Shown piece after piece: positions 16,535 through 33,448 of a stretch of 34,040 nt of DNA. Origin of the DNA: Bacillota bacterium (GTDB lineage: Bacteria > Bacillota > Desulfitobacteriia > Desulfitobacteriales > JAJXUE01). The notes under the pieces were generated by a model, which did no database searches, had not been told where the DNA came from, and saw nothing but the letters and a program-made list of their open reading frames with translations. The stretch covers positions 1 to 34,040 of the forward strand of contig JAJZPO010000027.1 in the NCBI GenBank assembly GCA_021811155.1, given 5' to 3'. How positions within the stretch are numbered: the first letter of the stretch is position 1; each line of letters opens with the position of its first letter. A program made the translations under genes and the position numbers.

Positions 16535-16774
16535 CTATAGAGCCTTTAGCCTTTTAGGTAGCATCCTGAGTTCAACCTCGCGTTCTACCCATGCTTTAAC
16601 CTTGTCTTTAGGGAAAATGAACCGACTCCCATGTCTCATGGTCGGAAAACCTTTCGTATTGGCTAACTCATAGGCCCTGGTTTCGCCACAGCGTAAGTAT
16701 TGCTGCAATTCTTTAATGGTCAAAAAATCTGGTAGATCCTCAAATTTTAGCCCTTGCTTCGGTTTGGTCGGCAC
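16535..16774 (-). CDS. Excisionase-like helix-turn-helix protein
   Basis: GTG at 16774 is preferred because GAGGAG lies eight bases upstream (the GTG at 16783 lies within it); 79 residues. The segment FLTIKELQQYLRCGETRAYE, then TMRHGSRFIFPKDKVKAWV, is the winged-helix DNA-binding fold of excisionase/helix_turn_helix_17 proteins. It overlaps the end of the XRE gene. As the second early gene in an integrase-bearing element it is a good candidate Xis, which steers integrase toward excision; it could also be a plain regulator. Confidence 0.8.
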   Translation of the reverse strand: MPTKPKQGLKFEDLPDFLTIKELQQYLRCGETRAYELANTKGFPTMRHGSRFIFPKDKVKAWVEREVELRMLPKRLKAL

Positions 16775-17021
16775 TAACCCCACTCCTCTTGTCTTGTATT
16801 TCCGACATTGAAAGCAAAATATTAAAGTCCATTCTTAAGGCCTTAGCAATTTTGTAAAGAGAATTAAGTGACGGCATATAACGACCAGCCTCAATATCTG
16901 CAAAGTAATTCCGTGATAGGCCTGCAGCCTCACCTACGACCTTTTGAGTCAACCTCAGATTGCGCCGTTGTTTCTGGATTGCGATTCCTAACTTCTGTTT
17001 GTCCAAAATCTCTTTTTCCAT
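16740..17021 (-). CDS. XRE-family regulator (Cro-like position)
   Basis: The 93-residue protein has an XRE helix-turn-helix at about 10-65: LGIAIQKQRRNLRLTQKVVG, AGLSRNYFADIEAGRYMPSL, ending LRMDFNILL. This closely parallels the HTH of the divergent repressor (AGISRSYLADVEAGRYNPSL), suggesting they read related operators. It is the first gene of the minus-strand early operon, the classic Cro position. The ATG at 17021 follows GGGAGGTGA. One operator-like box lies within its 3' end at 16794. Confidence 0.88.
   Translation of the reverse strand: MEKEILDKQKLGIAIQKQRRNLRLTQKVVGEAAGLSRNYFADIEAGRYMPSLNSLYKIAKALRMDFNILLSMSEIQDKRSGVSADQTEARAKI
16794..16807 (+). promoter_or_regulatory. Operator-like box inside xre 3' end
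   Basis: TTGTATTTCCGACA matches the box repeated in the repressor/early intergenic region (consensus TTGTATTTCCGTCA) at 13 of 14 positions. It lies within the XRE gene near the excisionase start. It may be a secondary operator or chance. Confidence 0.4.
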
Positions 17022-17051: not shown

Positions 17052-17080
17052 ATTGTAGTGTATTTCCGTCATTGACTCAA
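17052..17080 (-). promoter_or_regulatory. Early-operon promoter (minus strand)
   Basis: On the minus strand TTGAGT (17075-17080) and TACAAT (17052-17057) are separated by 17 bases, a good sigma-A spacing, and precede the XRE gene by about 30 bases. An operator box at 17058-17071 fills the spacer, so bound repressor would block polymerase. Confidence 0.72.
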
Positions 17081-17224
17081 AGCTGATTTCCCCCAATTAA
17101 GCCAAACTAGGAACATTTATCTTGTTTTCCCGTCCAATACCTTGTATTTCCGTCATATTTCGATTAATATACTACTTGTAATTCCGACTATTTACGGATA
17201 TAATTTGAAGTGTCGGGATTACCG
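17058..17224. promoter_or_regulatory. Operator array of repressor/early region
   Basis: Five boxes related to TTGTATTTCCGTCA occur at 17058-17071 (GTGTATTTCCGTCA), 17122-17135 (TTGTTTTCCCGTCC), 17142-17155 (exact), 17176-17189 (TTGTAATTCCGACT) and, inverted, 17211-17224 (CGGTAATCCCGACA read on the minus strand). They are direct repeats with little internal symmetry. They overlap both divergent promoters, as expected for a CI/Cro-type switch. Confidence 0.7.
17176..17204 (+). promoter_or_regulatory. Repressor promoter (plus strand)
   Basis: TTGTAA (17176-17181), a 17-base spacer and TATAAT (17199-17204) form a strong sigma-A promoter about 40 bases before the repressor ATG. The -35 lies inside an operator box, consistent with autoregulation. 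Confidence 0.75.
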
Positions 17225-17243
17225 TCTTAAAGGGGGGATTACA

Positions 17244-18104
17244 ATGGGTGTCGGGGAACGGATAAGAAAATATAGAAAAGATAGAGGGTTTACACAGACT
17301 CAACTTGCTCAAAAGGCTGGGATTTCGAGGTCATACCTGGCCGACGTGGAAGCCGGAAGATATAATCCGAGCTTATCAACTCTATTTGATATTGCTGCTC
17401 CTTTAGGAGTGCCTGCTAGCATCTTGTTGGATGATAAGGAGATTGACTTTAGCAATTTGATGTCTCTATGTCAACGAAGTGATATGACGCTTAATGCTCT
17501 TGCGAAAATCATTGAAATTTCAGGTGATGACTTAAACCTAATTAGAAGCAATAGATTACCCGATGATGATACAATGAACAAAATTTGTGACTATTTTAAT
17601 TGCACCTGGGATTATTTAATCGGAAAAACCAACGTTCTTAATGAAATTATCATAGGGGAAGAATCCATCCTTCTTCCTGATACAAATGCGCCTTTAAATC
17701 TAACCGAGAAGGTTCCTATTCTTGGAACTGTTGCTGCTGGATTTCCACTTTATGCAGAGCAGAATGTTATTGGCCACGAAGAGGTCCCAAAAAGTTTTTT
17801 GAAAGGCGCTGAGCACTTTTTCCTAATCGTAAAAGGTGAAAGCATGACTGGCAGCAGGATCTATCCCGGTGATAAGGTCTTGATCCGGCGCCAGCCCGAA
17901 GTTGAAAACGGACAGATCGCCTTAGTTTTAGTGGGGAATGAAGAAGCGACCCTAAAGCGGGTCAAATACGTAAACGGAAACGCCATATTATACCCCGATA
18001 ATCCCGCCCATGAGCCACAAATCTATCCGGCCAGTGAGGTCAGGATTATCGGTTATGTCACCCAGGTAATGTTTGACCCTAACCTTAAGAAGGGGCATGT
18101 ATAG
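17244..18104 (+). CDS. LexA/CI-type repressor with S24 autoprotease domain
   Basis: ATG at 17244 with AGGGGGG upstream gives 286 residues. Residues 3-62 are an XRE helix-turn-helix (TQTQLAQKAGISRSYLADVE). Residues about 70-128 look like a second HTH of the same kind (SDMTLNALAKIIEISGDDLN, then ICDYFNCTWDYLIGKTN). The C-terminal S24 domain has the Ala165-Gly166 cleavage bond in GTVAAGFPLY, Ser200 in KGESM and Lys238 in EATLKRV. RecA-stimulated self-cleavage after DNA damage would lift repression of the minus-strand operon. The operator array lies just upstream. Confidence 0.93.
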   Translation: MGVGERIRKYRKDRGFTQTQLAQKAGISRSYLADVEAGRYNPSLSTLFDIAAPLGVPASILLDDKEIDFSNLMSLCQRSDMTLNALAKIIEISGDDLNLIRSNRLPDDDTMNKICDYFNCTWDYLIGKTNVLNEIIIGEESILLPDTNAPLNLTEKVPILGTVAAGFPLYAEQNVIGHEEVPKSFLKGAEHFFLIVKGESMTGSRIYPGDKVLIRRQPEVENGQIALVLVGNEEATLKRVKYVNGNAILYPDNPAHEPQIYPASEVRIIGYVTQVMFDPNLKKGHV

Positions 18105-18160: not shown

Positions 18161-19375
18161 ATGCCCACAAAAACGAGCGAGACAAAAGAAGAAAAGAGTA
18201 AGCCGAAAGGCCCTAGAAGGGCTAATGGCGAAGGGTCAATCCATAAAATAAAGGAGGGAAAGCATAAAGGGAAATGGGTAGCCCAGGTAACCATCGGTAA
18301 AAGACCGGATGGCAAACCTGATAGGAAGACTTTTTATGGCAAGGGACGCGCAGAGGTAAAGGAAAAGCTAAAAGCTATTATGGATGAACTGGCGCAGGGA
18401 GTAAACCTTCAAAAACAGGGCGTACTTACCTTTGGAAGCTGGATTCAGACCTGGATGGATGACTACAAAAAGGTTAGCTTACGTCTATCTACCTGGGAGA
18501 CGTACGACCGGTTAATTCGAATCCATATCAAGCCAGCGTTAGAGACTTATACCCTTAGAGACCTAGACACCGGGCATATTCAACGGCTTTATAACAAAAT
18601 GATTGAAAATGGATCTTCTTCGGCCACTGTGCGAAAAGTTCACCAAATTATTGACTCATGCCTGGCTAAAGCCAAAGAAAACCGTCTTATAGCATGGAAC
18701 CCTGCTGATTCCGTTGAGCTTCCAAAGCTGGAATCAAAGAAGGTTAGAGCTATGACCACGGATGAAATGACAAAGTTTCTGAGTGTATTAAAACTCGATG
18801 TATGGGGAGTCGGCCTACTGACTCTATTAGGCACTGGCCTCCGGATCGGGGAGCTGCTTGCACTTGAATGGCCGGACATTGACCTTCGAAAAAAAATCAT
18901 CCATGTTAAACGGGCCATGATGAGAACTAAGGCCAAAGGGCTCGTATTGGGCGAACCTAAAACTCCAAGATCAGTTCGTGATATCCCTATTCCACCATAC
19001 CTTGCAGCTGCCATACGTTTATATAGAATTAAGCAGGTAAAGGGGCGCCTGGCTTCGGGTGAAAAATACCAAGACAACAACTTGGTTTTTTGTACCAGTA
19101 AAGGCACAAAGATTATTCCCCGGAACTTTCAACGAAAGTACTACAAGCTACGTGATGATACGGGACTTCCAAACGACCTAAACCTTCATTCGCTGCGACA
19201 TACCTACTCTACCAGGCTACTTGAACAGGGCGAAAACATGAAAACAATCGGTGAACTCCTGGGCCATGTTCACGTAGATACTACCGGAAGATATACTGAT
19301 GTCCTTCCTGAAACAAAAAGAAAAGCAGCTGATCAGATTAATCAACTGCTTAAAAAGAAAGCCTCTCAGAAATGA
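18161..19375 (+). CDS. int: Tyrosine-family site-specific integrase
   Basis: The 404-residue protein has the standard layout: an N-terminal AP2-like arm-binding region (GEGSIHKIKEGKHKGKWVAQ), a core-binding domain (about 90-175) and a catalytic domain. Catalytic residues visible are Arg228 (GTGLRIGELL), Lys267, His343 and Arg346 (LHSLRHTYS), His369 (LGHVHV) and Tyr378 (GRYTDV). ATG at 18161 follows AGGAGG. It ends 90 bases from tRNA-Val, the likely attachment site. Confidence 0.96.
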   Translation: MPTKTSETKEEKSKPKGPRRANGEGSIHKIKEGKHKGKWVAQVTIGKRPDGKPDRKTFYGKGRAEVKEKLKAIMDELAQGVNLQKQGVLTFGSWIQTWMDDYKKVSLRLSTWETYDRLIRIHIKPALETYTLRDLDTGHIQRLYNKMIENGSSSATVRKVHQIIDSCLAKAKENRLIAWNPADSVELPKLESKKVRAMTTDEMTKFLSVLKLDVWGVGLLTLLGTGLRIGELLALEWPDIDLRKKIIHVKRAMMRTKAKGLVLGEPKTPRSVRDIPIPPYLAAAIRLYRIKQVKGRLASGEKYQDNNLVFCTSKGTKIIPRNFQRKYYKLRDDTGLPNDLNLHSLRHTYSTRLLEQGENMKTIGELLGHVHVDTTGRYTDVLPETKRKAADQINQLLKKKASQK

Positions 19376-19540
19376 GAGACCAAGTGCGAAAAGTTTATTG
19401 CAGTACCGTTGCAGTACTGGGTTAATTGACGCTCTATCAAAAAAGCTGAAAGCCTTGATATAACTGGTGGGCGATACCGGGATCGAACCGATGACCTCTT
19501 CCGTGTGAAGGAAGCGCTCTCCCGACTGAGCCAATCGCCC
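19376..19540. other. Probable right attachment region (attR/attL) at tRNA-Val
   Basis: The prophage ends against the CCA end of tRNA-Val, so the core crossover probably lies in the 3' part of the tRNA, which the phage would restore. Between integrase and tRNA two 9-base direct repeats TTGCAGTAC (19398-19406 and 19409-19417, 11 bases apart) are candidates for integrase arm sites. The matching core on the far side is outside the window, so the exact crossover cannot be set. Confidence 0.6.
19465..19540 (-). tRNA. tRNA-Val (anticodon CAC)
   Basis: The minus strand reads GGGCGAT...ATCGCCC A CCA with full cloverleaf; the anticodon loop TTCACAC between CTTCC and GGAAG gives CAC. CCA is encoded (19465-19467). 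This is the prophage-proximal tRNA and the probable integration target. Confidence 0.95.
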
Positions 19541-19543
19541 AAA

Positions 19544-19680
19544 TTCGATTTTCGGAGTTCGATATTCGATGTTCGACTTAAGTCTTATTTGCAGCAAACC
19601 TAAAATGTCCGCTTAATTTGATCAACCCTCGCGCTCGGGTTCATTCGAACCACGAATCACGAATTTCGAATATCGAATTG
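19544..19680. repeat. Paired inverted 7-bp-period tracts between tRNAs
   Basis: 19544-19578 is five successive heptamers of the form TTCGNNN. 19646-19680 is five successive heptamers of the form CGAANNN, the inverse of the first. They flank a 67-base AT-rich spacer, so RNA or single strands could fold back. The tract ends directly at the CCA of tRNA-Met. Confidence 0.7.
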
Positions 19681-19757
19681 TGGTGGGCCCTCAGAGATTC
19701 GAACTCTGGACCAACCGGTTATGAGCCGGTTGCTCTGACCAACTGAGCTAAGGGCCC
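19681..19757 (-). tRNA. tRNA with CAT anticodon (elongator Met or Ile2)
   Basis: The minus strand reads GGGCCCT...AGGGCCC A CCA; loop CTCATAA between ACCGG and CCGGT gives CAT, and CCA is encoded. The sequence alone does not separate elongator Met from lysidine-modified Ile2; lack of initiator features argues against fMet. Confidence 0.92.
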
Positions 19758-19776
19758 GCAATAAAACAAAATAAAA

Positions 19777-19851
19777 TGGCTCCCCGAGCAGGACTCGAAC
19801 CTGCAACCTACCGGTTAACAGCCGGTTGCTCCACCATTGAGCTATCGAGGA
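19777..19851 (-). tRNA. tRNA-Asn (anticodon GTT)
   Basis: The minus strand reads TCCTCGA...TCGGGGA G CCA with loop CTGTTAA between ACCGG and CCGGT, giving GTT. CCA is encoded. It is first of three tRNAs read toward the prophage. Confidence 0.95.
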
Positions 19852-23509: not shown

Positions 23510-23755
23510 CTAAACTGTGGCCTTTGCCTTCTTTTTCATCGCCTTGGTCGAAAGGTTTTCATCCGCCTCCCACCAATCGATGCCAATTTCCCTGGCTTTG
23601 TCTACGGAAGCCACCACCAGGCGTATCTTGATGCTCAAAAGTTCCACATCGGCCAGGGATATCTTGATATCCCCCGCAATCACTATTCCTTTGTCCAGAA
23701 CTCTTTCCAGAATGTCCGCCAGGCTCGAAGCCTGGGTCGGGTGCTGTATGGGCAA
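23510..23755 (-). CDS. gvpJ: Gas vesicle protein GvpJ
   Basis: The 81-residue protein has the GvpA/J/M fold: LADILERVLDKGIVIAGDIK followed by DVELLSIKIRLVVASVDKAR and the J-type ending EIGIDWWE. The WWE motif and last position after gvpK match Bacillus GvpJ, a minor shell/nucleation component. Start is TTG at 23755 with GAGGAGGAG upstream. It is the final gene of the cluster, before a hairpin. Confidence 0.93.
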   Translation of the reverse strand: MPIQHPTQASSLADILERVLDKGIVIAGDIKISLADVELLSIKIRLVVASVDKAREIGIDWWEADENLSTKAMKKKAKATV

Positions 23756-23770
23756 ACCGGCTCCTCCTCT

Positions 23771-24112
23771 CTACATCAAGTTACCCAGAGGTCCCAGGTC
23801 TATGTTCAGATCCTCATCGTTCAGCCCGAAAACCTCTTTCAGCTCTGTCATCTTTGCTTCCAGTTGAATAAAGGTATTGCCGATACGTTCGATTTCCTCT
23901 TCCGTAAGAGTGTTGTTGTCCATTCTGCGCAGGGCCTGCTGCTCCAGCAGCCGTCTGATCAGTTCAATCAGGGTAAGGACCAGTTTGGCCAACCCCTGGT
24001 CCACCCGTTCAGGGTCTGCGTTGATTCTGTTGGGTACTTTGTTCTTTTCTTTTGCCATTTCAAGTTCAAATTCTGCCAGATCCTCGCAATCGAGCTTTAT
24101 CTTGTCGTTCAT
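23771..24112 (-). CDS. gvpK: Gas vesicle protein GvpK
   Basis: Start at ATG 24112 (MNDKIKLDCEDLAEFELEMA) overlaps the previous stop as ATGA and has GAGGAG upstream; 113 residues. The signature NADPERVDQGLAKLVLTLIE, LIRRLLEQQALRRMD and EEEIERIGNTFIQLE is GvpK, a small helical assembly factor. The longer frame to 24265 is antisense-like and rejected. It precedes gvpJ as in Bacillus. Confidence 0.95.
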   Translation of the reverse strand: MNDKIKLDCEDLAEFELEMAKEKNKVPNRINADPERVDQGLAKLVLTLIELIRRLLEQQALRRMDNNTLTEEEIERIGNTFIQLEAKMTELKEVFGLNDEDLNIDLGPLGNLM

Positions 24113-24801
24113 ACTCCACTCCTCAAGTCTTTCTCCGGGCCGGCAAAAGTGCAGGGAGGCCAGGGGCCGCTGGCCAAAAAACTGAGCCCGGGAAACAGAT
24201 TTTTTACCTCCTTCACCTGTTGCCAGAAGCGCTCCAACTCTGATCTGTCGATCAGAAATGCGCAATTGTAAAATAGTTTTTGCGTAACCAGATAGCGGGT
24301 TTTCTTCTCGGTCACCCAGGGAAAGCAGGAGTTTATCTCCTCCCCCAGGGACTTGGCCCGGGCCAGGCGCCGCTGCCGGACCCGCTCCTGCTCCAATCTG
24401 GCGAGGAGATATTCCCTGCCGCTAAGAGCGCTGCCTGGAGACACGTCCTGCTCCTCTTCCCGCCACAGAGCCTTGAGGCCCATCTCCACCTTCCCCGCCA
24501 GTCTTGCCATGAGTCGGGAAAACTCAGCCCCCTGCCGAGCCAAAGCCTCCAGTCCTGCTTCCTTTGACTCGAGAATCGTGCCAAACCTCACCGGCAGAAC
24601 AGTATAGTCCCCCATCAGGTCGTCCAGGAAGCAGGCATGCAGCGCCGCGAACTCGGGGCTGGACATTCTTTCTTTGGCAGGGGCCGCACAAATTAGCAGG
24701 CTCAAACCTGTATCGCTAAGCGCTTCTAGCTCCAATTCCCCAAACTTGCGCCCTGGAAAAGAGCTGCTGTCGATCAGACAAACCACATAGTATCTAGCCA
24801 T
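24109..24801 (-). CDS. Third GvpF/GvpL-family protein
   Basis: Start at ATG 24801 (MARYYVVCLIDSSSF) overlaps the gvpS stop by eight bases; 230 residues. The GvpF/L pattern is present: an N-terminal YYVVCLI strand, DDLMGDYTVLPVRFGTIL, EMGLKALWR, and a C-terminal FLIDRSELERFWQQV followed by SGPWPPCTF. The conserved final box is altered (CTF in place of YNF). Bacillus operons usually have two such genes, F and L; this extra copy sits between gvpS and gvpK. Probably an assembly factor that binds GvpA-type proteins. Confidence 0.9.
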   Translation of the reverse strand: MARYYVVCLIDSSSFPGRKFGELELEALSDTGLSLLICAAPAKERMSSPEFAALHACFLDDLMGDYTVLPVRFGTILESKEAGLEALARQGAEFSRLMARLAGKVEMGLKALWREEEQDVSPGSALSGREYLLARLEQERVRQRRLARAKSLGEEINSCFPWVTEKKTRYLVTQKLFYNCAFLIDRSELERFWQQVKEVKNLFPGLSFLASGPWPPCTFAGPEKDLRSGV

Positions 24802-24973
24802 GGGTTTCCCGCAGCCGGTCCACCGAAGCCAGTACCAGCTCCAGTCCAAGGTAGATCAGGTCCACATCCGCCACCGCAATAGTGATATCCCCCTTGATTA
24901 CCACCCCTTTATCCAGGATGCGGTCCAGAATTTCCAGCAGGGTCACCTCTTTAGCCCGGGCTAATTCATTCAT
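24794..24973 (-). CDS. gvpS: GvpS-like (GvpA-family) minor gas vesicle protein
   Basis: A 59-residue protein from ATG 24973 (GGGAGG six bases upstream) begins MNELARAKEVTLLEILDRIL and continues DKGVVIKGDITIAVADVDLI, then YLGLELVLASVDRLRETHG. It has the GvpA fold with the VIKGD and VDLIYL features of GvpS rather than A or J. Position between gvpL and gvpK matches Bacillus. The start overlaps the gvpL stop by eight bases. Confidence 0.92.
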   Translation of the reverse strand: MNELARAKEVTLLEILDRILDKGVVIKGDITIAVADVDLIYLGLELVLASVDRLRETHG

Positions 24974-26090
24974 TTTGTACCTCCCGGAAATCGGCGAAAT
25001 TGTACGGCGGCCACGGGCCCGTAGCTTCGATGATTAGGCCTAAATCCGATACTTTAGCCTCAAAATCTTCTATTATGCGGCAGAATTTTGCAACCTGGGA
25101 GTTTGGGAGCAGAAAAACCACATTTGCAATCATTTCCTCTTCCCGTCCGGTCACTTCCCTGCTGAGAGGCTCGTTGATCACCGAGCGCTCAGCTACAGGC
25201 TTCAATAAATCAAACAATTCCTGGGCGGTATTGTCAAGCGCCCGTTCAGCCTCTTCCTCCACCAACCGTTCCAGGCGCTTGCGCTTCAGATAGCCCGCAC
25301 CCGTGGCAGAGCCAAGCTCCTCATCTTCCCTGCCCGCCCCGACAGCATGGAACAGTTGGCTGCGCCGGCAGAAGAGCTTCACTCCCCACTCTTCCATCCC
25401 GTCCAAGTCCGCCAGCAGCCGGTCAATGCCCTGGGCGTTTCGGGCCAGGAAATCCTCCACCCTTCCCAGGCCCCGGAAAATGGTGCAGAACTTGAGCGGA
25501 ATCACTGGCCCGGACAGCATTGCCTGCTCGATCACCCGCTGGTGAGCCTGCACCTTGGCCTTAACCCATTCCGCATCTCTCAGTTTCATTTCAAGGGCCG
25601 TTTCGCCAAATTCCTCTTCCCCAACCGCGCTTACCACCGCTGCCGTGTTTCCCCGCCTGACCAGGTAACAATAGCTCCCTCGGGCCACACCCTCCAGCCC
25701 GTCCAAATCCGGGCTGTTTCTCCTAGCAAAGCAGTATGTATAGAGCAAATCTCCCCCAGTGCCAGAGAGATTACAGGTTGAGCCCCCTGATTGCCCGTCG
25801 CTAACCCTGGCCATGGCCGTAACCTCCGGCCCGATGGGGAAATCATCGCTGCAGATTCTTCCGCCGCACTGACCGGCCTCTTCCTCTCTGCCGAAACACT
25901 CAGGCCCCAAAACCTGCATTACCAGCTTTTCCACTTCCCGCCGCAGCATAGCCTTAATCTGTTGGCGGTATTCACCCAGTACTTCAGCCCTGAGTTCAGC
26001 CATCATCTGTTCCAGCTCCCGGGCCAAGTCCTCCCGCCAGAACTCAGGACCATCCTTGCGGTTCACCCATCCACCCCTCCCGTCAGGCAT
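24966..26090 (-). CDS. gvpL: GvpL-type protein with N-terminal extension
   Basis: The 374-residue protein is far longer than typical GvpL. The GvpF/L core begins near 112 (GDLLYTYCFARRNSPDLDGL) and contains MLSGPVIPLKFCTIFRGLG, GMEEWGVKLFCRR, SVINEPLS, NVVFLLPN and the final TGPWPPYNFADF. The first 110 residues add a charged helical/coiled-coil segment (REDLARELEQMMAELRAEVL), a Cys-rich loop and a Gly/Ser linker. It probably tethers a partner while the core binds shell protein. Position after gvpG fits GvpL. ATG overlaps the gvpG stop. Confidence 0.9.
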   Translation of the reverse strand: MPDGRGGWVNRKDGPEFWREDLARELEQMMAELRAEVLGEYRQQIKAMLRREVEKLVMQVLGPECFGREEEAGQCGGRICSDDFPIGPEVTAMARVSDGQSGGSTCNLSGTGGDLLYTYCFARRNSPDLDGLEGVARGSYCYLVRRGNTAAVVSAVGEEEFGETALEMKLRDAEWVKAKVQAHQRVIEQAMLSGPVIPLKFCTIFRGLGRVEDFLARNAQGIDRLLADLDGMEEWGVKLFCRRSQLFHAVGAGREDEELGSATGAGYLKRKRLERLVEEEAERALDNTAQELFDLLKPVAERSVINEPLSREVTGREEEMIANVVFLLPNSQVAKFCRIIEDFEAKVSDLGLIIEATGPWPPYNFADFREVQNE

Positions 26091-26353
26091 CAGTCAGCTT
26101 CGTCCACGCCTTCACCTGCGTCATATTCGACGTCAGCCGCCTGGCGCAGTCTCATCAAAAGCTGCGCTTCCCTCAACTCATACTCTTCCAGGCTCATTTC
26201 GTCCATTTCATACAGGAGCTGCAGTTCCAGAAGCTGCTGCCGGATCGTGTCCGGGTCCCGCCACTCAGCCATGACGTGATTGTAAATCTCCTTAAACAAC
26301 CAGACCAGAGCCTTGCCAGGCAGCCATAAGAGCAAATCGTCTACTACAAACAT
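26090..26353 (-). CDS. gvpG: Gas vesicle protein GvpG
   Basis: Start at ATG 26353 (MFVVDDLLLWLPGKALVWLF) is preferred over the GTG at 26362; 87 residues. The hydrophobic N-terminus followed by KEIYNHVMAEWRDPDTIRQQ and an acidic helical tail with LYEMDEMSLEEYE is the GvpG pattern. It is a small assembly protein lying between gvpF and gvpL. Confidence 0.93.
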   Translation of the reverse strand: MFVVDDLLLWLPGKALVWLFKEIYNHVMAEWRDPDTIRQQLLELQLLYEMDEMSLEEYELREAQLLMRLRQAADVEYDAGEGVDEAD

Positions 26354-26371
26354 ACTGCTCACCCCGCGGGC

Positions 26372-27124
26372 TTAGACATCACTAATGCGGATATCCACAA
26401 AATTGTAGGGGGGCCAGGGACCCGTATACTTGAACTGCAGTATCTCCTGGTGCGCCAGGTAAAGGTCATTGACTTTCAAGTCAAATTCATGCTCCCTGGC
26501 CTTTTCGATCAGGAAGGCGCTGTTGAACACCATCAGCTCGTTGATCAGCTTGTTCAGCCTGGCATCAGCAGAGAGCTGCTGCAGGGGCTTAAAGATCTCT
26601 TGCTCATACTTGCTGCGCAGTTCATTGGCAGCGTTCTCCACCGTTCTACCGAATTCCACCGCAAGCATATAGGCGCTGCCGCTGGCTTTCCCCTCAATCG
26701 ACCGCTTCAACTCCGTTAGGCGCGGCTGATGCCGGAACATTTCCGGCTGGAAGCTTTCCTTCTTCCACCAGACCTTCAAGCCCACTTCCATCTTGCCGCT
26801 GAAGAGCTCCAGCTTCTCCTTGAAAGCCGTGTAGTTCTGGCTTAAAAGCATTTTTGCCTTGTACTCATCCTGGCAGACCAGCCCGAAACTCATGGGGACC
26901 ACCGGAAATTCCCGCATGGCCTCGGCAATCACCTTTTCGTGGGCCAGGGCATTTTTGCGGGTCGGGTCGTAGGCTTTAACCGGCACATTGCTGACCACAA
27001 GGGCCAGGTCCTGGTAGTGCAAAGTGTAAACCCTGCCTGGGTCATCCCCTACCCCGATTTTGCCAAACTCGCGTTTTTCGCTGCAGGGAATCACGCAATA
27101 GAGATATCTGCCGGGAACCGCCAT
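26372..27124 (-). CDS. gvpF: Gas vesicle protein GvpF
   Basis: The 250-residue protein shows the standard GvpF/L architecture: RYLYCVIPC near the start, the LALVVSNVPV strand, FPVVPMSFGLV, EVGLKVWW, VFNSAFLIEKA and the closing TGPWPPYNFVDI. Placement right before gvpG matches gvpF of Bacillus. ATG at 27124 follows GAGGAG. GvpF binds GvpA and helps nucleate or deliver subunits. Confidence 0.94.
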   Translation of the reverse strand: MAVPGRYLYCVIPCSEKREFGKIGVGDDPGRVYTLHYQDLALVVSNVPVKAYDPTRKNALAHEKVIAEAMREFPVVPMSFGLVCQDEYKAKMLLSQNYTAFKEKLELFSGKMEVGLKVWWKKESFQPEMFRHQPRLTELKRSIEGKASGSAYMLAVEFGRTVENAANELRSKYEQEIFKPLQQLSADARLNKLINELMVFNSAFLIEKAREHEFDLKVNDLYLAHQEILQFKYTGPWPPYNFVDIRISDV

Positions 27125-27128
27125 CCCC

Positions 27129-29237
27129 TCATCTCCTCTCCCGGCCCAGTTCCTTCAGGGCCAGTTGAAAATGCTGCCGCGTGATCTCAAGTCCTCCGGG
27201 TTCAAAGTTTCCCTGTTTAATAATGTCTCGCACCGCCAAAAGGGCCGCCCTGCGGCACAGGTTGGCAATCTCCGCCCCGCTGAATCCTTCCGTTTGTTCC
27301 TGCAGCAGTTTCAGATCCACTTCCGGGGCAACCGGTTTGCCCGCAAAGTGTATCTTTAGGATTTCCAACCGGGCCTCCCGGTCAGGGTAAGGAAATTCCA
27401 GGTGCAGGTCAAATCTTCCGGGCCTGAGCAGGGCCGGGTCGATCATGTCAATTCTGTTGGTGGCTCCCATCACCATCACGCCGCGCAGTTCCTCGATACC
27501 GTCCATCTCAGTCAGGAGCTGGCTCAAAACCCTTTCCGCCGCGGGATCACCCCCGCCCCTGCCGCGCTGCGGCACCAGGGCATCAAGCTCGTCGAAAAAG
27601 ATTATGCAGGGGGAGGCCAGCCGGGCCTTTCTAAAAACCTCTCTTACTCCCTTTTCCGACTCCCCTACCCACTTTGACATCAGGGCCGGGCCCTTGACAG
27701 AAATAAAATTGGCTTCACACTGTTTGGCCAAAGCCTTGGCCATCAAAGTCTTGCCCGTTCCGGGCGGGCCGTAAAACAGCGTCCCTTTGGCCGCATCCAT
27801 TCCCGCTTCTGCAAACAGTTCAGGATATTTTAACGGCCACTCCACCGCTTCCGCCAGCTTTTCCTTGATCTCCCCAAGCCCACCTACCTGTTCGAAGCTG
27901 ACATCGGGCAGTTCCACACAGACCTCCCTGGTAACTGTTGGTTCTATCTCCCGCAGGGCGTTCAGAAAATGTTCCATGCCCACCTTTAACTGATATAGGC
28001 TTTCCAGGCTGACCGGACCGCCGCCCAGGGCCGGAAAGACCTGACGCAGGCAGCCCATGGCCGCTTCCTTGCACAAGGCTTCCAGGTCCGCCCCCACATA
28101 ACCGTGAGTTCTCCGGGCCAGTTTTTCCAGGTCCACGTCTTCCGCCAAGGGCATGCCCCGGGTATGGATCTGCAGAATCTTCAGCCTGCCCCGTTCGTCC
28201 GGAACACCTATGCTTATCTCCCGGTCAAACCTCCCCGGCCGGCGCAGGGCAGGGTCCAGGGCATTGGGAATGTTGGTCGCCCCGATAACGATTACCTGGC
28301 CGCGGGATTTCAGCCCGTCCATCAGGCCCAGAAGCTGAGCCACCACCCTTTTTTCAACTTCGCCGTGGACTTCCTCCCGCTTAGGGGCAACAGCGTCTAT
28401 CTCATCCAGGAAGATTATGCTGGGCGCCCTGCGCTGGGCCGCCTCGAAGATTTCTCTCAACCTGGCCTCGCTTTCTCCGTAGTACTTATGGATGATTTCC
28501 GGCCCGTTGATATGAAAAAAGCTGGCCTTGGATTCCCTCGCCACCGCCCTGGCGATCAAGGTCTTGCCCGTACCGGGCGGGCCGCTCAGGAGCACCCCTT
28601 GCGGCGCCTCAATCCCGAGCCGGTCAAAGACCTCAGGGTATTTCAAAGGCAGCTCGATTATTTCCCGCACCCGCATGAGTTCGTTCTCCAGGCCGCCAAT
28701 ATCCTCATAGGCAACCCTTTGTTCCTCAGGCTGCCCGCTTAAAGCCTTAAGCTTAATCTCCGTATCCTGCCCGATTTGCACCACCCCGGCGGGCAGGGTC
28801 TCACATACCCTTACTTCCTGGGTCCGGCTGCCAAACAGGTTTACCCGCAGTTTATCTCCTTTTACCATGACCAGGCCCTCCAGGAGCCTGGCCAAATATT
28901 CACCACCCTTAATCCCCTGTTTGCCCACGGGCTCCAGGATGACCATTTTGCCGGGCTGGCACTGAGTCTTGCTCACCGTCACCTTTTCACCCAACAAAAC
29001 CATAGCGTTTTCCCGGACCATGCCGTCGATTAGAATTAACTCCGGCTCGTCCCTTTGTTCCGGCGGTGACGGCATAACCCTCGCCACCGTTTCCCTTTTC
29101 CCTTTGATTTTGATTACGTCCCCGGTAACCAGGTCCTGCCCGCTTAAAACCGCGGGATCCATCCTGGCAATGGTCCTGCCCATGTCCCGCGGCAAAGCCT
29201 CAGCCGCCGCCAATACCAGTTCCTCAGCCTTTTCCAA
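27129..29237 (-). CDS. CDC48/VAT-type double AAA+ ATPase
   Basis: The 702-residue protein has an N-terminal double-psi-barrel substrate domain (1-165) and two AAA+ modules. D1 has GPPGTGKT 219-226, IIFLDE 274-279, pore loop KYYGESE 251-257 and RRPGR. D2 has GPPGTGKT 490-497, IIFFDE 545-550, SKWVGESE with an aromatic pore residue, and RPGR at 605-608. The whole plan is that of archaeal VAT/CDC48. Start is TTG at 29237 with GGGGGG before it, four bases after the ArsA-like gene. Inside a gas-vesicle operon it is probably an unfoldase or chaperone for shell proteins, which is inference. Confidence 0.95.
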   Translation of the reverse strand: MEKAEELVLAAAEALPRDMGRTIARMDPAVLSGQDLVTGDVIKIKGKRETVARVMPSPPEQRDEPELILIDGMVRENAMVLLGEKVTVSKTQCQPGKMVILEPVGKQGIKGGEYLARLLEGLVMVKGDKLRVNLFGSRTQEVRVCETLPAGVVQIGQDTEIKLKALSGQPEEQRVAYEDIGGLENELMRVREIIELPLKYPEVFDRLGIEAPQGVLLSGPPGTGKTLIARAVARESKASFFHINGPEIIHKYYGESEARLREIFEAAQRRAPSIIFLDEIDAVAPKREEVHGEVEKRVVAQLLGLMDGLKSRGQVIVIGATNIPNALDPALRRPGRFDREISIGVPDERGRLKILQIHTRGMPLAEDVDLEKLARRTHGYVGADLEALCKEAAMGCLRQVFPALGGGPVSLESLYQLKVGMEHFLNALREIEPTVTREVCVELPDVSFEQVGGLGEIKEKLAEAVEWPLKYPELFAEAGMDAAKGTLFYGPPGTGKTLMAKALAKQCEANFISVKGPALMSKWVGESEKGVREVFRKARLASPCIIFFDELDALVPQRGRGGGDPAAERVLSQLLTEMDGIEELRGVMVMGATNRIDMIDPALLRPGRFDLHLEFPYPDREARLEILKIHFAGKPVAPEVDLKLLQEQTEGFSGAEIANLCRRAALLAVRDIIKQGNFEPGGLEITRQHFQLALKELGRERR

Positions 29238-29240
29238 CTC

Positions 29241-30182
29241 TTACCCCCCAAACATGGACTCCGCTACCCGGCGCAGACCTTCTGTCCCCCTGATGCCGAC
29301 CGGATCCATGGGCGCCTTGCGGATATCCCAGCCGGCAAAACTCCGTAGGGCCTCTTGCATAATTTTCTGCTGCTCCTCGTAAACCTGGCGGCAGAAAGGG
29401 CACTCGTGCTGCAGTGGCATTACCCTGTTCAGTATCAGATTACGCACAGGAATTTTTTTTTGCCGCAAGCTTGAAGCCAGCCGCTTGGTTTCCGCCAGCA
29501 CCATCCGCTCCAGAAGGCTCACCAGCACCAGTCTGCTCTGTTCCTGGTTCTGCAGCAGGGCGTTTACCCTTTTTACTGTTTTCTTTAGCACAAACAGGAG
29601 ATCGTCAGCCGGGTCCTCCACCCGCCTGCCGGAAAGGGTTGTAATAAAACTCTTGTACTTCCACCGCAGGCGGGCCAAGAGCTTTATCCACTGGTCAAAG
29701 GTTTCAGGCAGAGCCAGCAAACGCAAGGTATGTCCGGTTGGAGCTGTATCCCAGACAAAAAGCTCAAATTCCCTGCTTTCCATAAAATCCATTACGGCCT
29801 TTAACCCCATTAATTCATCTATTCCCGGCACATCCAGATCCAGGCTGTCCTCAACATCTCCCCGGTCCAGATAGGTAGCAGCCACCAGAAAGTCGACAAA
29901 CTCTGCGCCATATTGACTTTTCAATTCCGCTAAATTCCGTTCTGCATCAAGTTCCACCGCCCACAGGTTTTTTACGCCTGCAACAGGCCCAATCTCACCC
30001 TTGGGAAGCGGGATACCCAGACTATCAGCCAGGGAATGGGCCGGATCGGTGGAAAAGAGCAGCGCTTTGATGCCCCTGTCTGCCGCGTGCAGGGCAGTTG
30101 CCGCAGCGCATGTCGTCTTGCCCACCCCGCCCTTGCCGCTGAACAAGATGAACTTCTGACCTGTGAGGAAGCTCGCATGCAT
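29241..30182 (-). CDS. ArsA/Get3-family ATPase in gas vesicle cluster
   Basis: Start at ATG 30182 (MHASFLTGQKFILF, AGGTGA upstream) gives 313 residues; the frame beyond it reads into a heptamer repeat and is excluded. P-loop GKGGVGKTT 16-24, switch I STDPAHSL 44-51, switch II DTAPTGHT 145-152 and the CPFC pair at 261/264 mark the ArsA/Get3 family. In Get3 the CxxC binds the zinc of the dimer that carries tail-anchored helices. No arsenic genes are near. A role in shielding hydrophobic GvpA is plausible but unproven. Confidence 0.95.
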   Translation of the reverse strand: MHASFLTGQKFILFSGKGGVGKTTCAAATALHAADRGIKALLFSTDPAHSLADSLGIPLPKGEIGPVAGVKNLWAVELDAERNLAELKSQYGAEFVDFLVAATYLDRGDVEDSLDLDVPGIDELMGLKAVMDFMESREFELFVWDTAPTGHTLRLLALPETFDQWIKLLARLRWKYKSFITTLSGRRVEDPADDLLFVLKKTVKRVNALLQNQEQSRLVLVSLLERMVLAETKRLASSLRQKKIPVRNLILNRVMPLQHECPFCRQVYEEQQKIMQEALRSFAGWDIRKAPMDPVGIRGTEGLRRVAESMFGG

Positions 30183-30460
30183 TGGCTCACCTGCTAACTT
30201 TAGGGTCGGAATACAGAATTCGGCCACAGCAGATTTTCTTTTCGGTCGGAATTCAGAAATCAGCCACAGAAGCCGTTCTTTCAGGTCGGAATTCAGAAGT
30301 CAGAAGGCAAAGTCTTTTTTGCAACTGCGGTTTTCCCTAGCGGCATGCATGTCTGACTTCAGAGATACACGGTCTAACTTCTGACTTCCGACCCGAGGCG
30401 CTGACTACTTGGCCGAATTCTGTATTCTGTATTCCGACCCCAGAGGAATATCCCTTAGCA
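30183..30460. repeat. Heptamer-rich spacer upstream of ArsA-like gene
   Basis: About 278 bases with tracts opening GGTCGGA then ATACAGA or ATTCAGA at 30204, 30244 and 30284, and closing inverted tracts ending TCCGACC at 30373-30393 and 30412-30439. The block is thus bounded by opposed copies. No gene or clear promoter is seen. It separates the Hsp20 and ArsA-like genes. Confidence 0.7.
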
Positions 30461-30940
30461 CTACCCTTTGGGCACTACTACCTCCAGGATCCCATTCCTG
30501 CAGCTGAACTTCAGTTGGTCCGCTTTGACGACGCACGGCAGAGCGAGCCCCTTGGTGTAGAGACGGTGATGCCCGGCAGCGTGAAGGTGGAGAACCCCAT
30601 TTTCCACTGTTACCTTGACCTGCTCCTGGCTTACGCCTGGCAGCTCGGCCGTAATCACAAGCTGACCAGGCTCGTCAAACACGTCTGCCAGGGGTTCCCA
30701 TGCCCCTACTTCCACTTTGTCAGCCCCAAGCCGCATATTGCCAAAGGTCTTTACCTTTGAGGTTTCCCCCTGGCCCAGCTTCAAAGTAAAGCCGTACACC
30801 CCCTGCAGGGGTTCGCCATTTCCCAGGCTTTTGCTGAAGGTTCCCGTCTTGCTGACCTCGTTCTGCCCCGCATCCTCCATTTGCTTGGCCAGCTCGAGCA
30901 GGGAACCTATGGCCTTAAACAAATCGTTAAAACCTGACAT
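30461..30940 (-). CDS. gvpH: Hsp20/GvpH-like small heat-shock protein
   Basis: The 159-residue protein has an alpha-crystallin core near 85-155: DVFDEPGQLVITAELPGVSQ, VKVTVENGVLHLHAAG, LPCVVKADQLKFSCRNGILE and VVVPKG. The N-terminal 80 residues are variable. Its layout matches Hsp20-type proteins found in gvp clusters and called GvpH. ATG at 30940 overlaps the coiled-coil gene. Likely holds aggregation-prone gas vesicle proteins. Confidence 0.87.
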   Translation of the reverse strand: MSGFNDLFKAIGSLLELAKQMEDAGQNEVSKTGTFSKSLGNGEPLQGVYGFTLKLGQGETSKVKTFGNMRLGADKVEVGAWEPLADVFDEPGQLVITAELPGVSQEQVKVTVENGVLHLHAAGHHRLYTKGLALPCVVKADQLKFSCRNGILEVVVPKG

Positions 30941-31184
30941 CGTTTAACCCCACTATCTGACTGCCGTTTTCTCCACGTTTGATAGCCCGCTCCACTGCAG
31001 CCATGTTGGTTTCCAGCTGCCGTACCCGTTGTTCAATTTGCGAGATGCGCTTGCGCAGGATCTCTTTTTCCCGTTCCAGCCGTTCCTTTTCTTTCAGCAT
31101 CAGGTGCATCTCGAAATAACTTGGTTCCTTGATGGCCCGGGTATGGGGCAGGTAAATGTCCCTGGTGGTGATGAGCTGCGACAT
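30927..31184 (-). CDS. Coiled-coil protein of gas vesicle cluster
   Basis: ATG at 31184 is preferred over 31193 because GGAAGG then has usable spacing; 85 residues. After a short N-terminal arm, residues 25-70 are a continuous coiled coil (MLKEKERLEREKEILRKRIS and on). It overlaps the Hsp20 gene by 14 bases. I cannot match it to a named Gvp; it may pair with the Hsp20 protein or GvpN. Confidence 0.75.
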   Translation of the reverse strand: MSQLITTRDIYLPHTRAIKEPSYFEMHLMLKEKERLEREKEILRKRISQIEQRVRQLETNMAAVERAIKRGENGSQIVGLNDVRF

Positions 31185-31203
31185 TTCAACCATTCCTTCC
31201 CTG

Positions 31204-32097
31204 TTAGCAGACCAGATTCATCAGATCATCTATGGTCTTTCTCAACTTATTCTTTTCCGTCTGGGACTCCAGTCTGCCTGACTCTGACATCAGCACATCA
31301 AAACAGACTTCCCGGAACATGGGGTCTTCGCCCCCGGCTTTGATCCTGCACTCCTTGCACACGCGGGCGATCATGATCGTGGCCCGAAGCGAAGGGGCAA
31401 ATTGCGAACTGGCAACGAAACGCAAGTCCCGCACCAGATTCACGATGCGCTCCACATCAGACTTTGGCAGACCCGACTTGACACAGGCAATCATTATTTC
31501 CGTTTCCCGGTCGTAATAGCTGAGGTCGATGGTGATCATTCTGTCCCGCAAAGCATCCTGAAACTTGTGTACCCCTGCGTATTCTTCCGGATTGCTGGTA
31601 AAAATGGCGGAAAACTCCGGGTGCACCTTTAAGATTTGCTCCCCCTTTTGGAACTGGGAGAGGTCAAGAATTTTCTCTTCCAGCACCGCCAGGAGCGCAT
31701 TGTTGGCTTCGGGACGGGAACGGGTAAACTCGTCGTACACCAGGGTGGCGCCTATCCGGCACGCCCGGGTCAACCTGCCGTCATACCACACCGAGTCAAC
31801 CGACTCCTCGCCCTTCCAGACTGAATGGATGTAATTGTCAACTACCTTTTTGCGCTTGAGCCCGAAATTTCCGCCTATCAGGTCAGTGTTGGTAAACTCA
31901 TCATTGCCGTGGATAAGCATGACCGGCCGCTTAAGCTGCTCAGCCGCATACAAGGCCAGCGTGGTTTTTCCGGTCCCGGCCGGCCCGCAAAAATGAACCG
32001 GGAACCCGGCCCTCAGGTAAGTCAGCGCCTTATTGATAATCTTTTTGATACACTGGGTTTCTACGAACTTGCCGTCACTGCGCAGGATGTCTGTCAT
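31204..32097 (-). CDS. gvpN: Gas vesicle ATPase GvpN
   Basis: Start at ATG 32097 (MTDILRSDGKFVETQCIKKI); 297 residues. It is a MoxR-type AAA+ ATPase: Walker A GPAGTGKTT 38-46, Walker B LVYDEF 119-124 followed by TRSRPEANNALLAVLEE, sensor I IFTSNPEEYAG, and RDRMITIDL. These motifs with the gvp context identify GvpN, which helps vesicle enlargement. Confidence 0.97.
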   Translation of the reverse strand: MTDILRSDGKFVETQCIKKIINKALTYLRAGFPVHFCGPAGTGKTTLALYAAEQLKRPVMLIHGNDEFTNTDLIGGNFGLKRKKVVDNYIHSVWKGEESVDSVWYDGRLTRACRIGATLVYDEFTRSRPEANNALLAVLEEKILDLSQFQKGEQILKVHPEFSAIFTSNPEEYAGVHKFQDALRDRMITIDLSYYDRETEIMIACVKSGLPKSDVERIVNLVRDLRFVASSQFAPSLRATIMIARVCKECRIKAGGEDPMFREVCFDVLMSESGRLESQTEKNKLRKTIDDLMNLVC

Positions 32098-32123
32098 AGC
32101 CCAACTACCCACCTTATTTCAAT

Positions 32124-32393
32124 CTAATCCTGGAGCTGTGTCTCAACTTGTGTCCTTTCCCTCAATCCTTTGCGCTGGTAGCCCAGTATTTCGCCGTTTT
32201 CGTGCACCTCTACCTGATACAGGGCTAGGATATCGTCCTGGCCCCGTTTTCTCAGATACTCCGAATCCTCAATAGTTTCTACCTCGACCCACCAGCCGTT
32301 CTCCATCCTGGTCACTCCGATTACGTTGGCGGGTTTATGCAAAGTCGTTTGAAAGAATTGACTTACCAGTTCAACCAGTTTCACTATGCCCAT
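32124..32393 (-). CDS. gvpO: Gas vesicle protein GvpO
   Basis: Start at ATG 32393 (MGIVKLVELVSQFFQ) with GGGAGGGAAGG upstream gives 89 residues; the longer frame to 32489 lacks a ribosome site. GWWVEVETIEDSEYLRKRGQ and DDILALYQVEVHENGEILGY are the GvpO signature. It is the first gene after gvpA2 and probably shares its transcript through the intervening hairpin. Confidence 0.94.
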   Translation of the reverse strand: MGIVKLVELVSQFFQTTLHKPANVIGVTRMENGWWVEVETIEDSEYLRKRGQDDILALYQVEVHENGEILGYQRKGLRERTQVETQLQD

Positions 32394-32533
32394 TGCCTTC
32401 CCTCCCCCTGCGGTCTTCAGCGAAATTTCCGCTCCCTTTGAAATTCTATGTATCCCACCCTGCGAAGGTGCCGGATCCCCTTGCCTCAAGCGCCTAACCT
32501 GCCAGCACAGATCACCCTAAGCCTGCCCCAACT

Positions 32534-32568
32534 TCTGAATTCTGACTTCTGAATTCTGAATTCCGACC
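32534..32568. repeat. Heptamer tract ending TCCGACC
   Basis: TCTGAAT, TCTGACT, TCTGAAT, TCTGAAT and TCCGACC follow in exact 7-base register between gvpA2 and gvpO. Confidence 0.75.
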
Positions 32569-32602
32569 CTTGAGAACAGACTCCTGAGTCTGCTTAAAAG
32601 TG

Positions 32603-32636
32603 TGGTCGAGACACGGCCGCTGCCATGTCTCGACCA
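32603..32636 (-). terminator. Hairpin after gvpA2 (attenuator or RNA stabiliser)
   Basis: TGGTCGAGACA (32603-32613) and TGTCTCGACCA (32626-32636) form a perfect 11-bp stem with a 12-base loop; on the minus strand a short CACTTTTAA follows. Lying 22 bases after the gvpA2 stop, it may end most transcripts or protect gvpA mRNA while some polymerase continues to gvpO. Confidence 0.65.
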
Positions 32637-32657
32637 TAGGACTATACTTGGAAAATC

Positions 32658-32870
32658 CTAGAAAACCGGATCGGCTTTTAACAAACCTACAGCTCCGGCA
32701 TACTTGAGCCAGGTGTTAACAGAGGCGATAACCACCCTGGCTTCCACAGCCAGCAGTTCGATCCCTACCAGGGACACCCTGACAAATGCGTCGATAACAA
32801 TACCTTTGTCTAAGATCCGGTCGATAACTTCCGCCAGGCTGGACGCGTCAATGTCTTTGTGAATGGCCAT
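32658..32870 (-). CDS. gvpA: Major gas vesicle shell protein GvpA, copy 2
   Basis: ATG at 32870 follows AAGGGGG; 70 residues. [20 protein letters not shown] and [20 protein letters not shown] are diagnostic of GvpA. It is 58/70 identical by eye to the other copy; differences cluster at the C-terminus (LLKADPVF). Own promoter upstream at 32972-33000. It builds the ribbed gas-vesicle wall. Confidence 0.98.
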
Positions 32871-32971
32871 TTTACAACCCCCTTTTTTTCTAGATATTTC
32901 CCAGCTCTCCCCTCTCGGGCAGGGCATTGGAAACAGCTTGTTCTGGATTTGTCCAGGCCCCTCGCCTGTCT

Positions 32972-33000
32972 ACCATATTATATTTGGGCTTCAAGGACAA
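32972..33000 (-). promoter_or_regulatory. gvpA2 promoter
   Basis: TTGTCC (32995-33000) and TATGGT (32972-32977) lie 17 bases apart on the minus strand, preceding ATG by about 100 bases. The block AATATAATATGGTAGACA nearly matches the one upstream of gvpA1 (AATATAGTATTGTAGACA), the main support. A sporulation sigma cannot be excluded. Confidence 0.65.
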
Positions 33001-33144
33001 AGGTTCCAACAGTCCGGAAAATTTGTCCTCTTTAATTGGGTGCTGAGAAGGCCGGAGCCCGGAGGCCTATGGAAGCACGGCAAACATTTCTTGACTATTA
33101 TTTTAAGAAAGCACGGCAGCCACGGGTTCGTTTTTCCAGGCCAT

Positions 33145-33179
33145 TCTGAATTCTGCCTTCTGACTTCTGAATTCCAACC
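33145..33179. repeat. Heptamer tract between gvpA genes
   Basis: TCTGAAT, TCTGCCT, TCTGACT, TCTGAAT and TCCAACC follow in 7-base register; same order and near-same end unit as the tract at 32534. Confidence 0.72.
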
Positions 33180-33271
33180 TATAATTCTTCCTTCTAGCTG
33201 CACGCACATCTAATGAATTATATGTCAGGGGCTTTCTCTCTGCTAATAGGTATTCTTTTCCACGTTACGGC

Positions 33272-33305
33272 AAAAACCGGGAAGGGCTTTCCCCCTCCCG
33301 GTTTT
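33272..33305 (-). terminator. Terminator downstream of gvpA1
   Basis: AAAACCGGGA (33273-33282) pairs with TCCCGGTTTT (33296-33305), extended by three inner G-C pairs; the minus strand then reads TTTTTG. It would make gvpA1 mostly monocistronic. Confidence 0.8.
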
Positions 33306-33324
33306 CACCGGAAACCTTATAGTA

Positions 33325-33447
33325 GAGACCGTTCAAAAACGAGTATAGCGCGGAGAACACTCTGCCGGCACCGGAGGCGTACTGGACGTACGTTGAGGAT
33401 GCCGGCCGAGTGTTCGACAAAGCTAGACGAAGTTTTTCAACGGTCTC
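33325..33447. repeat. 123-bp palindromic intergenic element
   Basis: Outer arms 33325-33340 and 33432-33447 pair 15 of 16 (GAGACCGTTcAAAAAC). Inner arms 33355-33370 and 33400-33415 pair with one or two mismatches (GAACACTC, TGCCGGCA). The tip is CGTAC-TGGAC-GTACG at 33378-33392. It ends two bases from the gvpA1 stop. It resembles miniature inverted-repeat or REP-type elements; no ORF inside. Confidence 0.7.
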
Positions 33448-33448
33448 C

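What the first reader, a model, noticed from the sequence alone, without database searches (positions are those of the whole stretch)
17058..17224. Array of non-palindromic operator boxes in the lysogeny switch
Five TTGTATTTCCGTCA-like boxes (four direct, one inverted) cover both divergent promoters, one inside the early spacer and one over the repressor -35. Most CI-type operators are palindromic; directly repeated asymmetric boxes suggest an unusual binding mode, perhaps linked to the two HTH segments in the repressor.
Basis: partly seen in the sequence, partly recalled or inferred. Interest (0 to 1): 0.5.

Follow-up and report, generated by a model that had tools for sequence, protein, structure and literature searches.

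The report
phi105-type prophage switch operator array
This is the on/off switch of a prophage that uses the one-directional repressor sites known from Bacillus phage phi105, here joined by a second, mirror-symmetric site that phi105 itself lacks.

Summary
The boxes are real: four co-oriented copies of GACGGAAATACAAG (0-2 mismatches) lie between the divergent genes, and 0 of 2000 shuffles match that. The box at 17141-17154 is letter for letter the box found three times in phage phi105's immunity region, and the first helix-turn-helix (HTH) is 55% identical to the phi105 repressor. So the asymmetric operator is a known kind. It is not tied to the two HTH segments: phi105's 144-aa repressor has one.

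New or unreported here, from 70 non-redundant relatives:
(1) Boxes follow the lytic transcription direction, 209 to 1.
(2) The box at the cro end is conserved as DNA in two reading frames.
It is present in 58 of 73 loci with at most 1 mismatch, absent from phi105, and kept where no Cro-like gene was found.
(4) This repressor carries an S24 self-cleavage domain where most relatives have an ImmA-like protease gene.

The parts
17141..17154 (-). asymmetric operator box, exact GACGGAAATACAAG
   Evidence: identical to three phi105 boxes; equivalent of the ~-97 site, exact in 25 of 40 family arrays
17121..17134 (-). asymmetric operator box, 2 mismatches
17175..17188 (-). asymmetric operator box that contains the -35 of the repressor promoter PM
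   Evidence: the equivalent site has 2-3 mismatches in 39 of 40 family arrays
17057..17070 (-). asymmetric operator box in the -35/-10 spacer of the lytic promoter PR
16793..16806 (-). intragenic operator box in the 3' end of the cro-like gene (encodes M-S-E-I-Q), just upstream of the excisionase-like gene
   Evidence: DNA conserved in two reading frames in relatives
17211..17227 (.). symmetric operator TGTCGG-N5-CCGTCT over the expected PM start
   Evidence: 10 of 10 letters of GWCGG-N5-CCGWC; 57 of the 70 family clusters also have it with 0-1 mismatch
17176..17204 (+). repressor promoter PM (TTGTAA-17-TATAAT)
   Evidence: conserved in family consensus
17052..17080 (-). lytic promoter PR (TTGAGT-17-TACAAT)
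   Evidence: -35 and -10 region conserved in the alignment with relatives
17244..18104 (+). CI-type repressor, 286 aa: HTH_3 (7-59), second HTH_26-type bundle (71-121), low-confidence linker (134-178), Peptidase_S24 (158-272)
16740..17021 (-). Cro-like XRE protein, 93 aa; HTH 47% identical to the repressor's first HTH
16535..16783 (-). HTH_17 protein, excisionase-like, first gene after the intragenic box
18161..19375 (+). tyrosine integrase

Best explanation
This is a phi105-type immunity switch. The first HTH of the repressor, a SinR-like fold, most likely acts as a dimer on 17-bp sites of one geometry with two kinds of half-site. The symmetric site has the strong half (TGWCGG) on both sides, five bases apart. 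The asymmetric boxes have the strong half on one side and a fixed alternative half (TACTTG) on the other, always pointing along lytic transcription. Repressor on the asymmetric boxes shuts PR, limits PM (the weaker box on its -35), and marks the end of cro, where it may block RNA polymerase that has already started. The symmetric site over the PM start gives repressor autoregulation. DNA damage probably lifts repression by RecA-assisted self-cleavage of the S24 domain, which takes the place of the separate ImmA-like protease of phi105 and most relatives. Shown by sequence: boxes, palindrome, orientation, positions, conservation, domain make-up. Inferred: binding, dimer mode, autoregulation, roadblock and trigger.
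For: Exact phi105 box and layout. First HTH 55% identical to the phi105 repressor. In 70 non-redundant loci chosen by protein, not by box: 67 have a box at <=2 mismatches and 61 have at least two; 209 on the cro strand against 1; 0 in reversed controls. A template-free motif search recovers AATGACGGAAATACAAg. 36 control loci with other repressors gave no box. Palindrome, exact or 1 mismatch with spacer 5, in 58 of 73, against 0 exact and 3 one-mismatch in 511 control tiles. Its variable positions are those of the box half-site, and there are no compensatory pairs as an RNA hairpin would need. In L172, L178 and L180 the same place holds an asymmetric-type site. All 12 loci examined where the helix pattern found no Cro-like gene keep the palindrome; tblastn later found a divergent Cro in one of them, L156, and a marginal hit (E 0.46) in L164. 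The SinR-DNA complex is a close fold match to the first HTH. The S24 domain aligns to LexA over the Ala-Gly, Ser and Lys regions (which residues are catalytic is recalled).
Against: No binding data for this protein. The phi105 footprinting papers were not readable here; only a citation of the 1989 paper was seen. phi105 and its clade lack the palindrome, so it is not essential to this kind of switch. The asymmetric motif as a whole shows no excess self-complementarity, so a monomer reading 14 bp in two parts, as in L5-type repressors, is not excluded. Of the window's two-HTH relatives, L146 and L147 have only half of the palindrome (2 mismatches). Several of the Cro-less loci are close relatives of one another.
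Confidence: 0.65

Rival explanations
1. A repressor monomer reads the asymmetric box with two domains, the first HTH on one part and the second HTH (or another C-terminal segment) on the other, as in mycobacteriophage L5-type repressors.
For: Published structure of an L5-type repressor: a monomer uses two domains on an asymmetric site, and site orientation follows transcription (PMC9283540, abstract and passages). The window repressor has two HTH bundles.
Against: phi105 carries the same boxes and its repressor has only one Pfam HTH. In the window and L126-L128 the second recognition helix varies while the first and the boxes do not. The symmetric site of like geometry argues for a dimer.
Confidence: 0.15
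2. The palindrome is the operator of the Cro-like protein, and the asymmetric boxes are for the repressor; symmetry tells the two regulators apart.
For: It sits over the PM start, where a Cro would act; PM-side sites favour GTCGG (T in 31 of 47 at the PM -35 box against 40 of 189 elsewhere).
Against: 12 of 12 examined loci without a Cro-like helix by pattern keep the palindrome; a more sensitive tblastn found a divergent Cro in one of them (L156), so 11 remain. phi105 has a Cro-like gene and no palindrome.
Confidence: 0.2
3. The palindrome works as an RNA hairpin in the repressor leader rather than as a DNA operator.
For: It lies in the expected 5' leader and could pair.
Against: In 58 sites single-sided changes that break pairing occur (10 G-A, 8 T-T, 5 G-A) and no compensatory double changes; letters match the operator half-site.
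Confidence: 0.05
4. The cro-internal box is kept only because the Cro protein needs the peptide M-T-E-I-Q.
For: 34 of 71 loci examined, the window included, have it in that frame.
Against: 12 others carry the same DNA in another frame (N-D-G/V-N-T in 11, I-D-G-N-T in 1) and 1 lies beyond the cro stop; all 34 Ile codons in the box are ATA against 140 of 357 elsewhere in the same genes.
Confidence: 0.03

Closest known systems
Bacillus phage phi105 immunity region (repressor gp31, Cro-like gp32, metalloprotease gp30; M11920, NC_048631)
   Same: Identical 14-bp asymmetric box; first HTH 55% identical; co-oriented boxes between divergent genes plus one inside the cro-like gene
   Different: phi105 repressor has one HTH and no S24, and a separate M78 protease; phi105 has no TGTCGG-N5-CCGACA palindrome
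Mycobacteriophage L5 / TipsytheTRex repressor and stoperators
   Same: Several short asymmetric sites whose orientation follows transcription, some within transcribed DNA (PMC9283540, passages)
   Different: L5 has more than twenty sites through the genome; here the sites cluster in one switch. Domain make-up is HTH, HTH, S24, not HTH plus stoperator domain
SinR / DdrO / ImmR class of XRE regulators
   Same: Fold and sequence of the first HTH (SinR-DNA 3zkc, TM 0.93 of target); ImmA-like protease next to most relatives
   Different: This repressor has a second HTH and S24 in place of an ImmA-cleaved C-terminus; box sequence is that of phi105
Staphylococcal phi11-type CI repressors
   Same: Residues 60-276 (second HTH plus S24) align with staphylococcal CI proteins at about 30%
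   Different: An extra phi105-type HTH is placed in front, and the operators fit that HTH

Membership tests
phi105-type repressor/operator switch | 14-bp asymmetric box GACGGAAATACAAG in several copies at the divergent promoters | tested here: met
phi105-type repressor/operator switch | N-terminal HTH homologous to the phi105 repressor, helix SRSYLADxE | tested here: met
phi105-type repressor/operator switch | separate ImmA-like M78 protease gene after the repressor (usual in the family, not universal) | tested here: not met
   window repressor carries S24 and is followed directly by the integrase; M78 in 47 of 66 relatives' chosen downstream ORFs
phi105-type repressor/operator switch | repressor binds the box | not testable with these tools
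   needs footprinting
lambda-type CI switch | palindromic operators at both promoters | tested here: not met
   only one palindrome, at PM; other sites asymmetric
lambda-type CI switch | S24 self-cleavage domain with Ala-Gly, Ser and Lys | tested here: met
   by alignment to LexA; activity not tested
L5-type stoperator system | many co-oriented sites across the genome | tested here: not met
   4 boxes plus 1 intragenic, none elsewhere at <=2 mismatches in the window
L5-type stoperator system | site orientation tied to transcription | tested here: met
   209 to 1 in 70 relatives

The most novel reading that the evidence does not exclude
One repressor reading head uses two operator symmetries built from a shared half-site at the same spacing. 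Asymmetric boxes, locked to the direction of lytic transcription and including a roadblock site written into cro in whichever reading frame is available, control the lytic operon. A single palindrome, absent from the textbook phage phi105, sets the repressor's own level.
Probability: 0.45. Interest if true: 0.65.

Novelty: new variant of a known kind. Interest (0 to 1): 0.5.

Why it matters
phi105 is cited as one of few phages whose repressor uses asymmetric operators (PMC1934351, passages). The family survey shows that strictly oriented asymmetric sites and a symmetric site with the same half-site coexist in most relatives. One purified protein and two short DNAs can therefore test how an HTH repressor reads asymmetry and what orientation is for. 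It also shows one DNA reading head and its operators kept while the induction trigger changes (ImmA-like protease or S24 self-cleavage).

Tried and rejected
A first motif search on both strands returned a pseudo-palindrome. That search on the cro-gene part alone gave a different leading pattern (TGAAAATGGcGGAAATACACC), which I read as a blend of coding sequence and box and did not use.

Helical phasing of the spacings (23, 30, 53, 74-75, 104-105, 127-128 bp) is suggestive but mixed; I make no claim. The distance from the intragenic box to the main box (334-366 bp) is too variable to argue for a fixed loop.

No clear promoter at the intragenic box: one search gave 3 promoter-like sites with 1.5 expected, one of them weak (9 of 12) inside cro.

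Rows dropped: 8 of 125 loci (helix pattern not found); 117 then collapsed to 70 clusters at 90% identity of the first 66 aa. Alignment A2 left out 1 cluster (L171, stop at the presumed start). Alignment A3 left out 4 clusters with no downstream ORF found; for L171, L186 and L189 I took the second listed ORF. Loci without any box at <=3 mismatches: L158, L188, L257; these three also lacked a Cro-like helix and were not among the 12 Cro-less loci examined.

Papers: PMC9283540, PMC1934351, PMC12637031, PMC8960796 read as passages only. The van Kaer 1989 paper was seen only as a citation; that the phi105 operator is this 14-mer, and the 1987 paper, are recalled. Searches naming phi105, asymmetric operators or the box letters showed no description of the palindrome or of the two-frame cro box in their listings; the early phi105 papers are not in that library.

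Full report
What is there. Between the cro-like gene (16740-17021, - strand) and the repressor gene (17244-18104, + strand) lie four copies of one 14-bp box, all reading GACGGAAATACAAG along the cro strand with 0-2 mismatches. Dinucleotide shuffles of this stretch average 0.003 such boxes and never reach four in 2000 trials. A fifth copy (16793-16806, 1 mismatch) sits inside the 3' end of the cro-like gene, directly upstream of an excisionase-like gene. No other stretch of the window reaches 2 mismatches. In the whole host genome, a search for GWCGGAAWTACAAG with up to one mismatch finds three of these boxes and one other place.

It is a known kind of operator. The box at 17141 is identical to three boxes in the phi105 immunity region, where a fourth copy has 2 mismatches and one of the exact ones lies in the phi105 cro-like gene. 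The window repressor's first 65 residues are 55% identical to the phi105 repressor over their whole length. That phi105 has asymmetric operators is stated in PMC1934351 (passages), which cites the 1989 phi105 repressor paper; that the operator is this 14-mer is my recollection, and the original papers were not readable here.

Family survey. To avoid choosing loci by the box, I searched genomes and viral contigs with the first HTH. Of 125 loci, 117 carry the helix; they fall into 70 clusters at 90% N-terminal identity. Within 520 bp upstream of the repressor, 67 of 70 have a box at <=2 mismatches and 61 have two or more; 209 boxes lie on the cro strand and 1 on the repressor strand; reversed sequences give 0. 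A motif search with no template on the cro strand recovers AATGACGGAAATACAAg, about 303 sites. Thirty-six control loci with other repressors show no box at <=2 mismatches. The arrays are stereotyped: sites near -450 (in cro), -200, -127, -97 and -74, with common spacings of 23, 30, 53 and 75 bp. The -97 site is exact in 25 of 40 arrays that have the 23-bp pair; the -74 site, which doubles as the PM -35, has 2-3 mismatches in 39 of 40.

Asymmetry is real. Built from 251 sites, the motif's best overlap with its own reverse complement is 0.20, below the mean of column-permuted controls (0.30).

At 17211-17227 the window reads TGTCGG-GATTA-CCGTCT. In the family, GWCGG-N5-CCGWC between -75 and -1 is exact in 33 of 73 loci (70 clusters, window, phi105 and its relative A9Y) and has one mismatch in 25, with spacer 5 (one further locus has a one-mismatch match with spacer 6). 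Control tiles elsewhere give 0 exact and 3 with one mismatch in 511. It begins 12-19 bp after the start of the PM -10 in 57 of 58 cases, so it covers the expected start of the repressor transcript. phi105, A9Y and the phi105-like cluster L205 lack it. The half-site is that of the box, with the same tolerated letters (A or T at its second base, G mostly and T sometimes at its fifth). Paired changes that an RNA stem would need are absent. In L172, L178 and L180 the place is taken by an asymmetric-type site with CCGAC kept on one side. Of 15 loci with no Cro-like helix by pattern, the 12 that have boxes all keep the palindrome, and I looked at those 12. A tblastn with up to 13 Cro proteins found a divergent Cro in one of them (L156), a marginal hit in L164 (E 0.46) and none in the other ten. 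Their neighbours include sigma-like, XtrA-like and ssDNA-binding genes among the ten ORFs scanned.

The cro-internal box. Of 71 loci examined (70 and the window), 34 carry it in frame as M-T/S-E-I-Q (with single variants), 12 in a second frame (N-D-G/V-N-T in 11, I-D-G-N-T in 1), and 1 beyond the cro stop; 9 have a Cro-like gene without a box near its end, and 15 had no Cro-like helix found. In the first group the Ile codon is ATA in 34 of 34 (140 of 357 elsewhere in these genes), Thr is ACG in 29 of 29 (42 of 233) and Glu is GAA in 34 of 34 (191 of 273). The DNA, not the peptide, is what is kept. Relatedness among the loci means these ratios are not probabilities. What the site does is inferred: a roadblock to transcription, as in mycobacteriophage L5, where site orientation also follows transcription (PMC9283540, passages), is my first choice; looping is possible.

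The repressor. Pfam finds HTH_3 at 7-59, HTH_26 at 71-121 and S24 at 158-272. The AlphaFold2 model shows two helical bundles (3-61, 70-125), a low-confidence linker (134-178) and a beta-rich C-terminal domain. LexA is the best fold match, and the SinR-DNA complex also matches, with TM 0.93 of the target. The S24 part aligns to LexA through the VAAG, GESM and TLKR segments. Residues 60-276 also align to staphylococcal CI proteins, so the protein looks like a phi105-type HTH placed before a phi11-type CI. Same-order relatives L126-L128 share the two-HTH core but lack S24 and have a downstream metalloprotease-like gene (Pfam M78 shown for L127, and for L146, the same stretch as L128). S24 occurs in 5 of 71 repressors scanned and M78 in 47 of 66 downstream ORFs. 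The reading head and operators are conserved while the trigger varies.

Two HTH segments do not explain the asymmetry. phi105's repressor has one HTH by Pfam and the same boxes. In the window and L126-L128 the first recognition helix reads ISRSYLADVE in all four, while the second reads ISGDDLNLIR, LSNDSMERIR, ISPKELDHIR and ISSKELAHIK.

Verdict. The operator type is known from phi105. The symmetric companion site, the two-frame intragenic box and the S24 version are what this work adds; I could not check the early phi105 papers for the intragenic box, and phi105 itself lacks the palindrome.

Noticed in passing
window 23510-33661 (- strand): A gas-vesicle gene cluster (two GvpA-type, two GvpL/F, GvpG, an AAA ATPase, an Hsp20-like protein among the proteins scanned) lies about 4 kb beyond the integrase end of the prophage, in a genome whose order includes Desulfosporosinus.
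   Followed up: partly
window 19465-19851: Three tRNA genes (Val, Met, Asn) directly follow the integrase gene; the tRNA-Val end is a likely attachment site.
   Followed up: no
window 17176-17181 and family -74 sites: PM-side operators favour GTCGG (T in 31 of 47) and other boxes GACGG (T in 40 of 189), a possible one-base code for tuning the two promoters.
   Followed up: partly
L122 2430-2490 (phi105 leader): phi105 lacks the palindrome but has another inverted repeat (TGCCAC...GTGGCA) at the same place in its repressor leader.
   Followed up: no
L152, L164, L175, L241 and relatives: phi105-type repressor and boxes stand before operons without a detected Cro-like gene, with XtrA-like or sigma-like genes in some, resembling PBSX-type elements.
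   Followed up: partly
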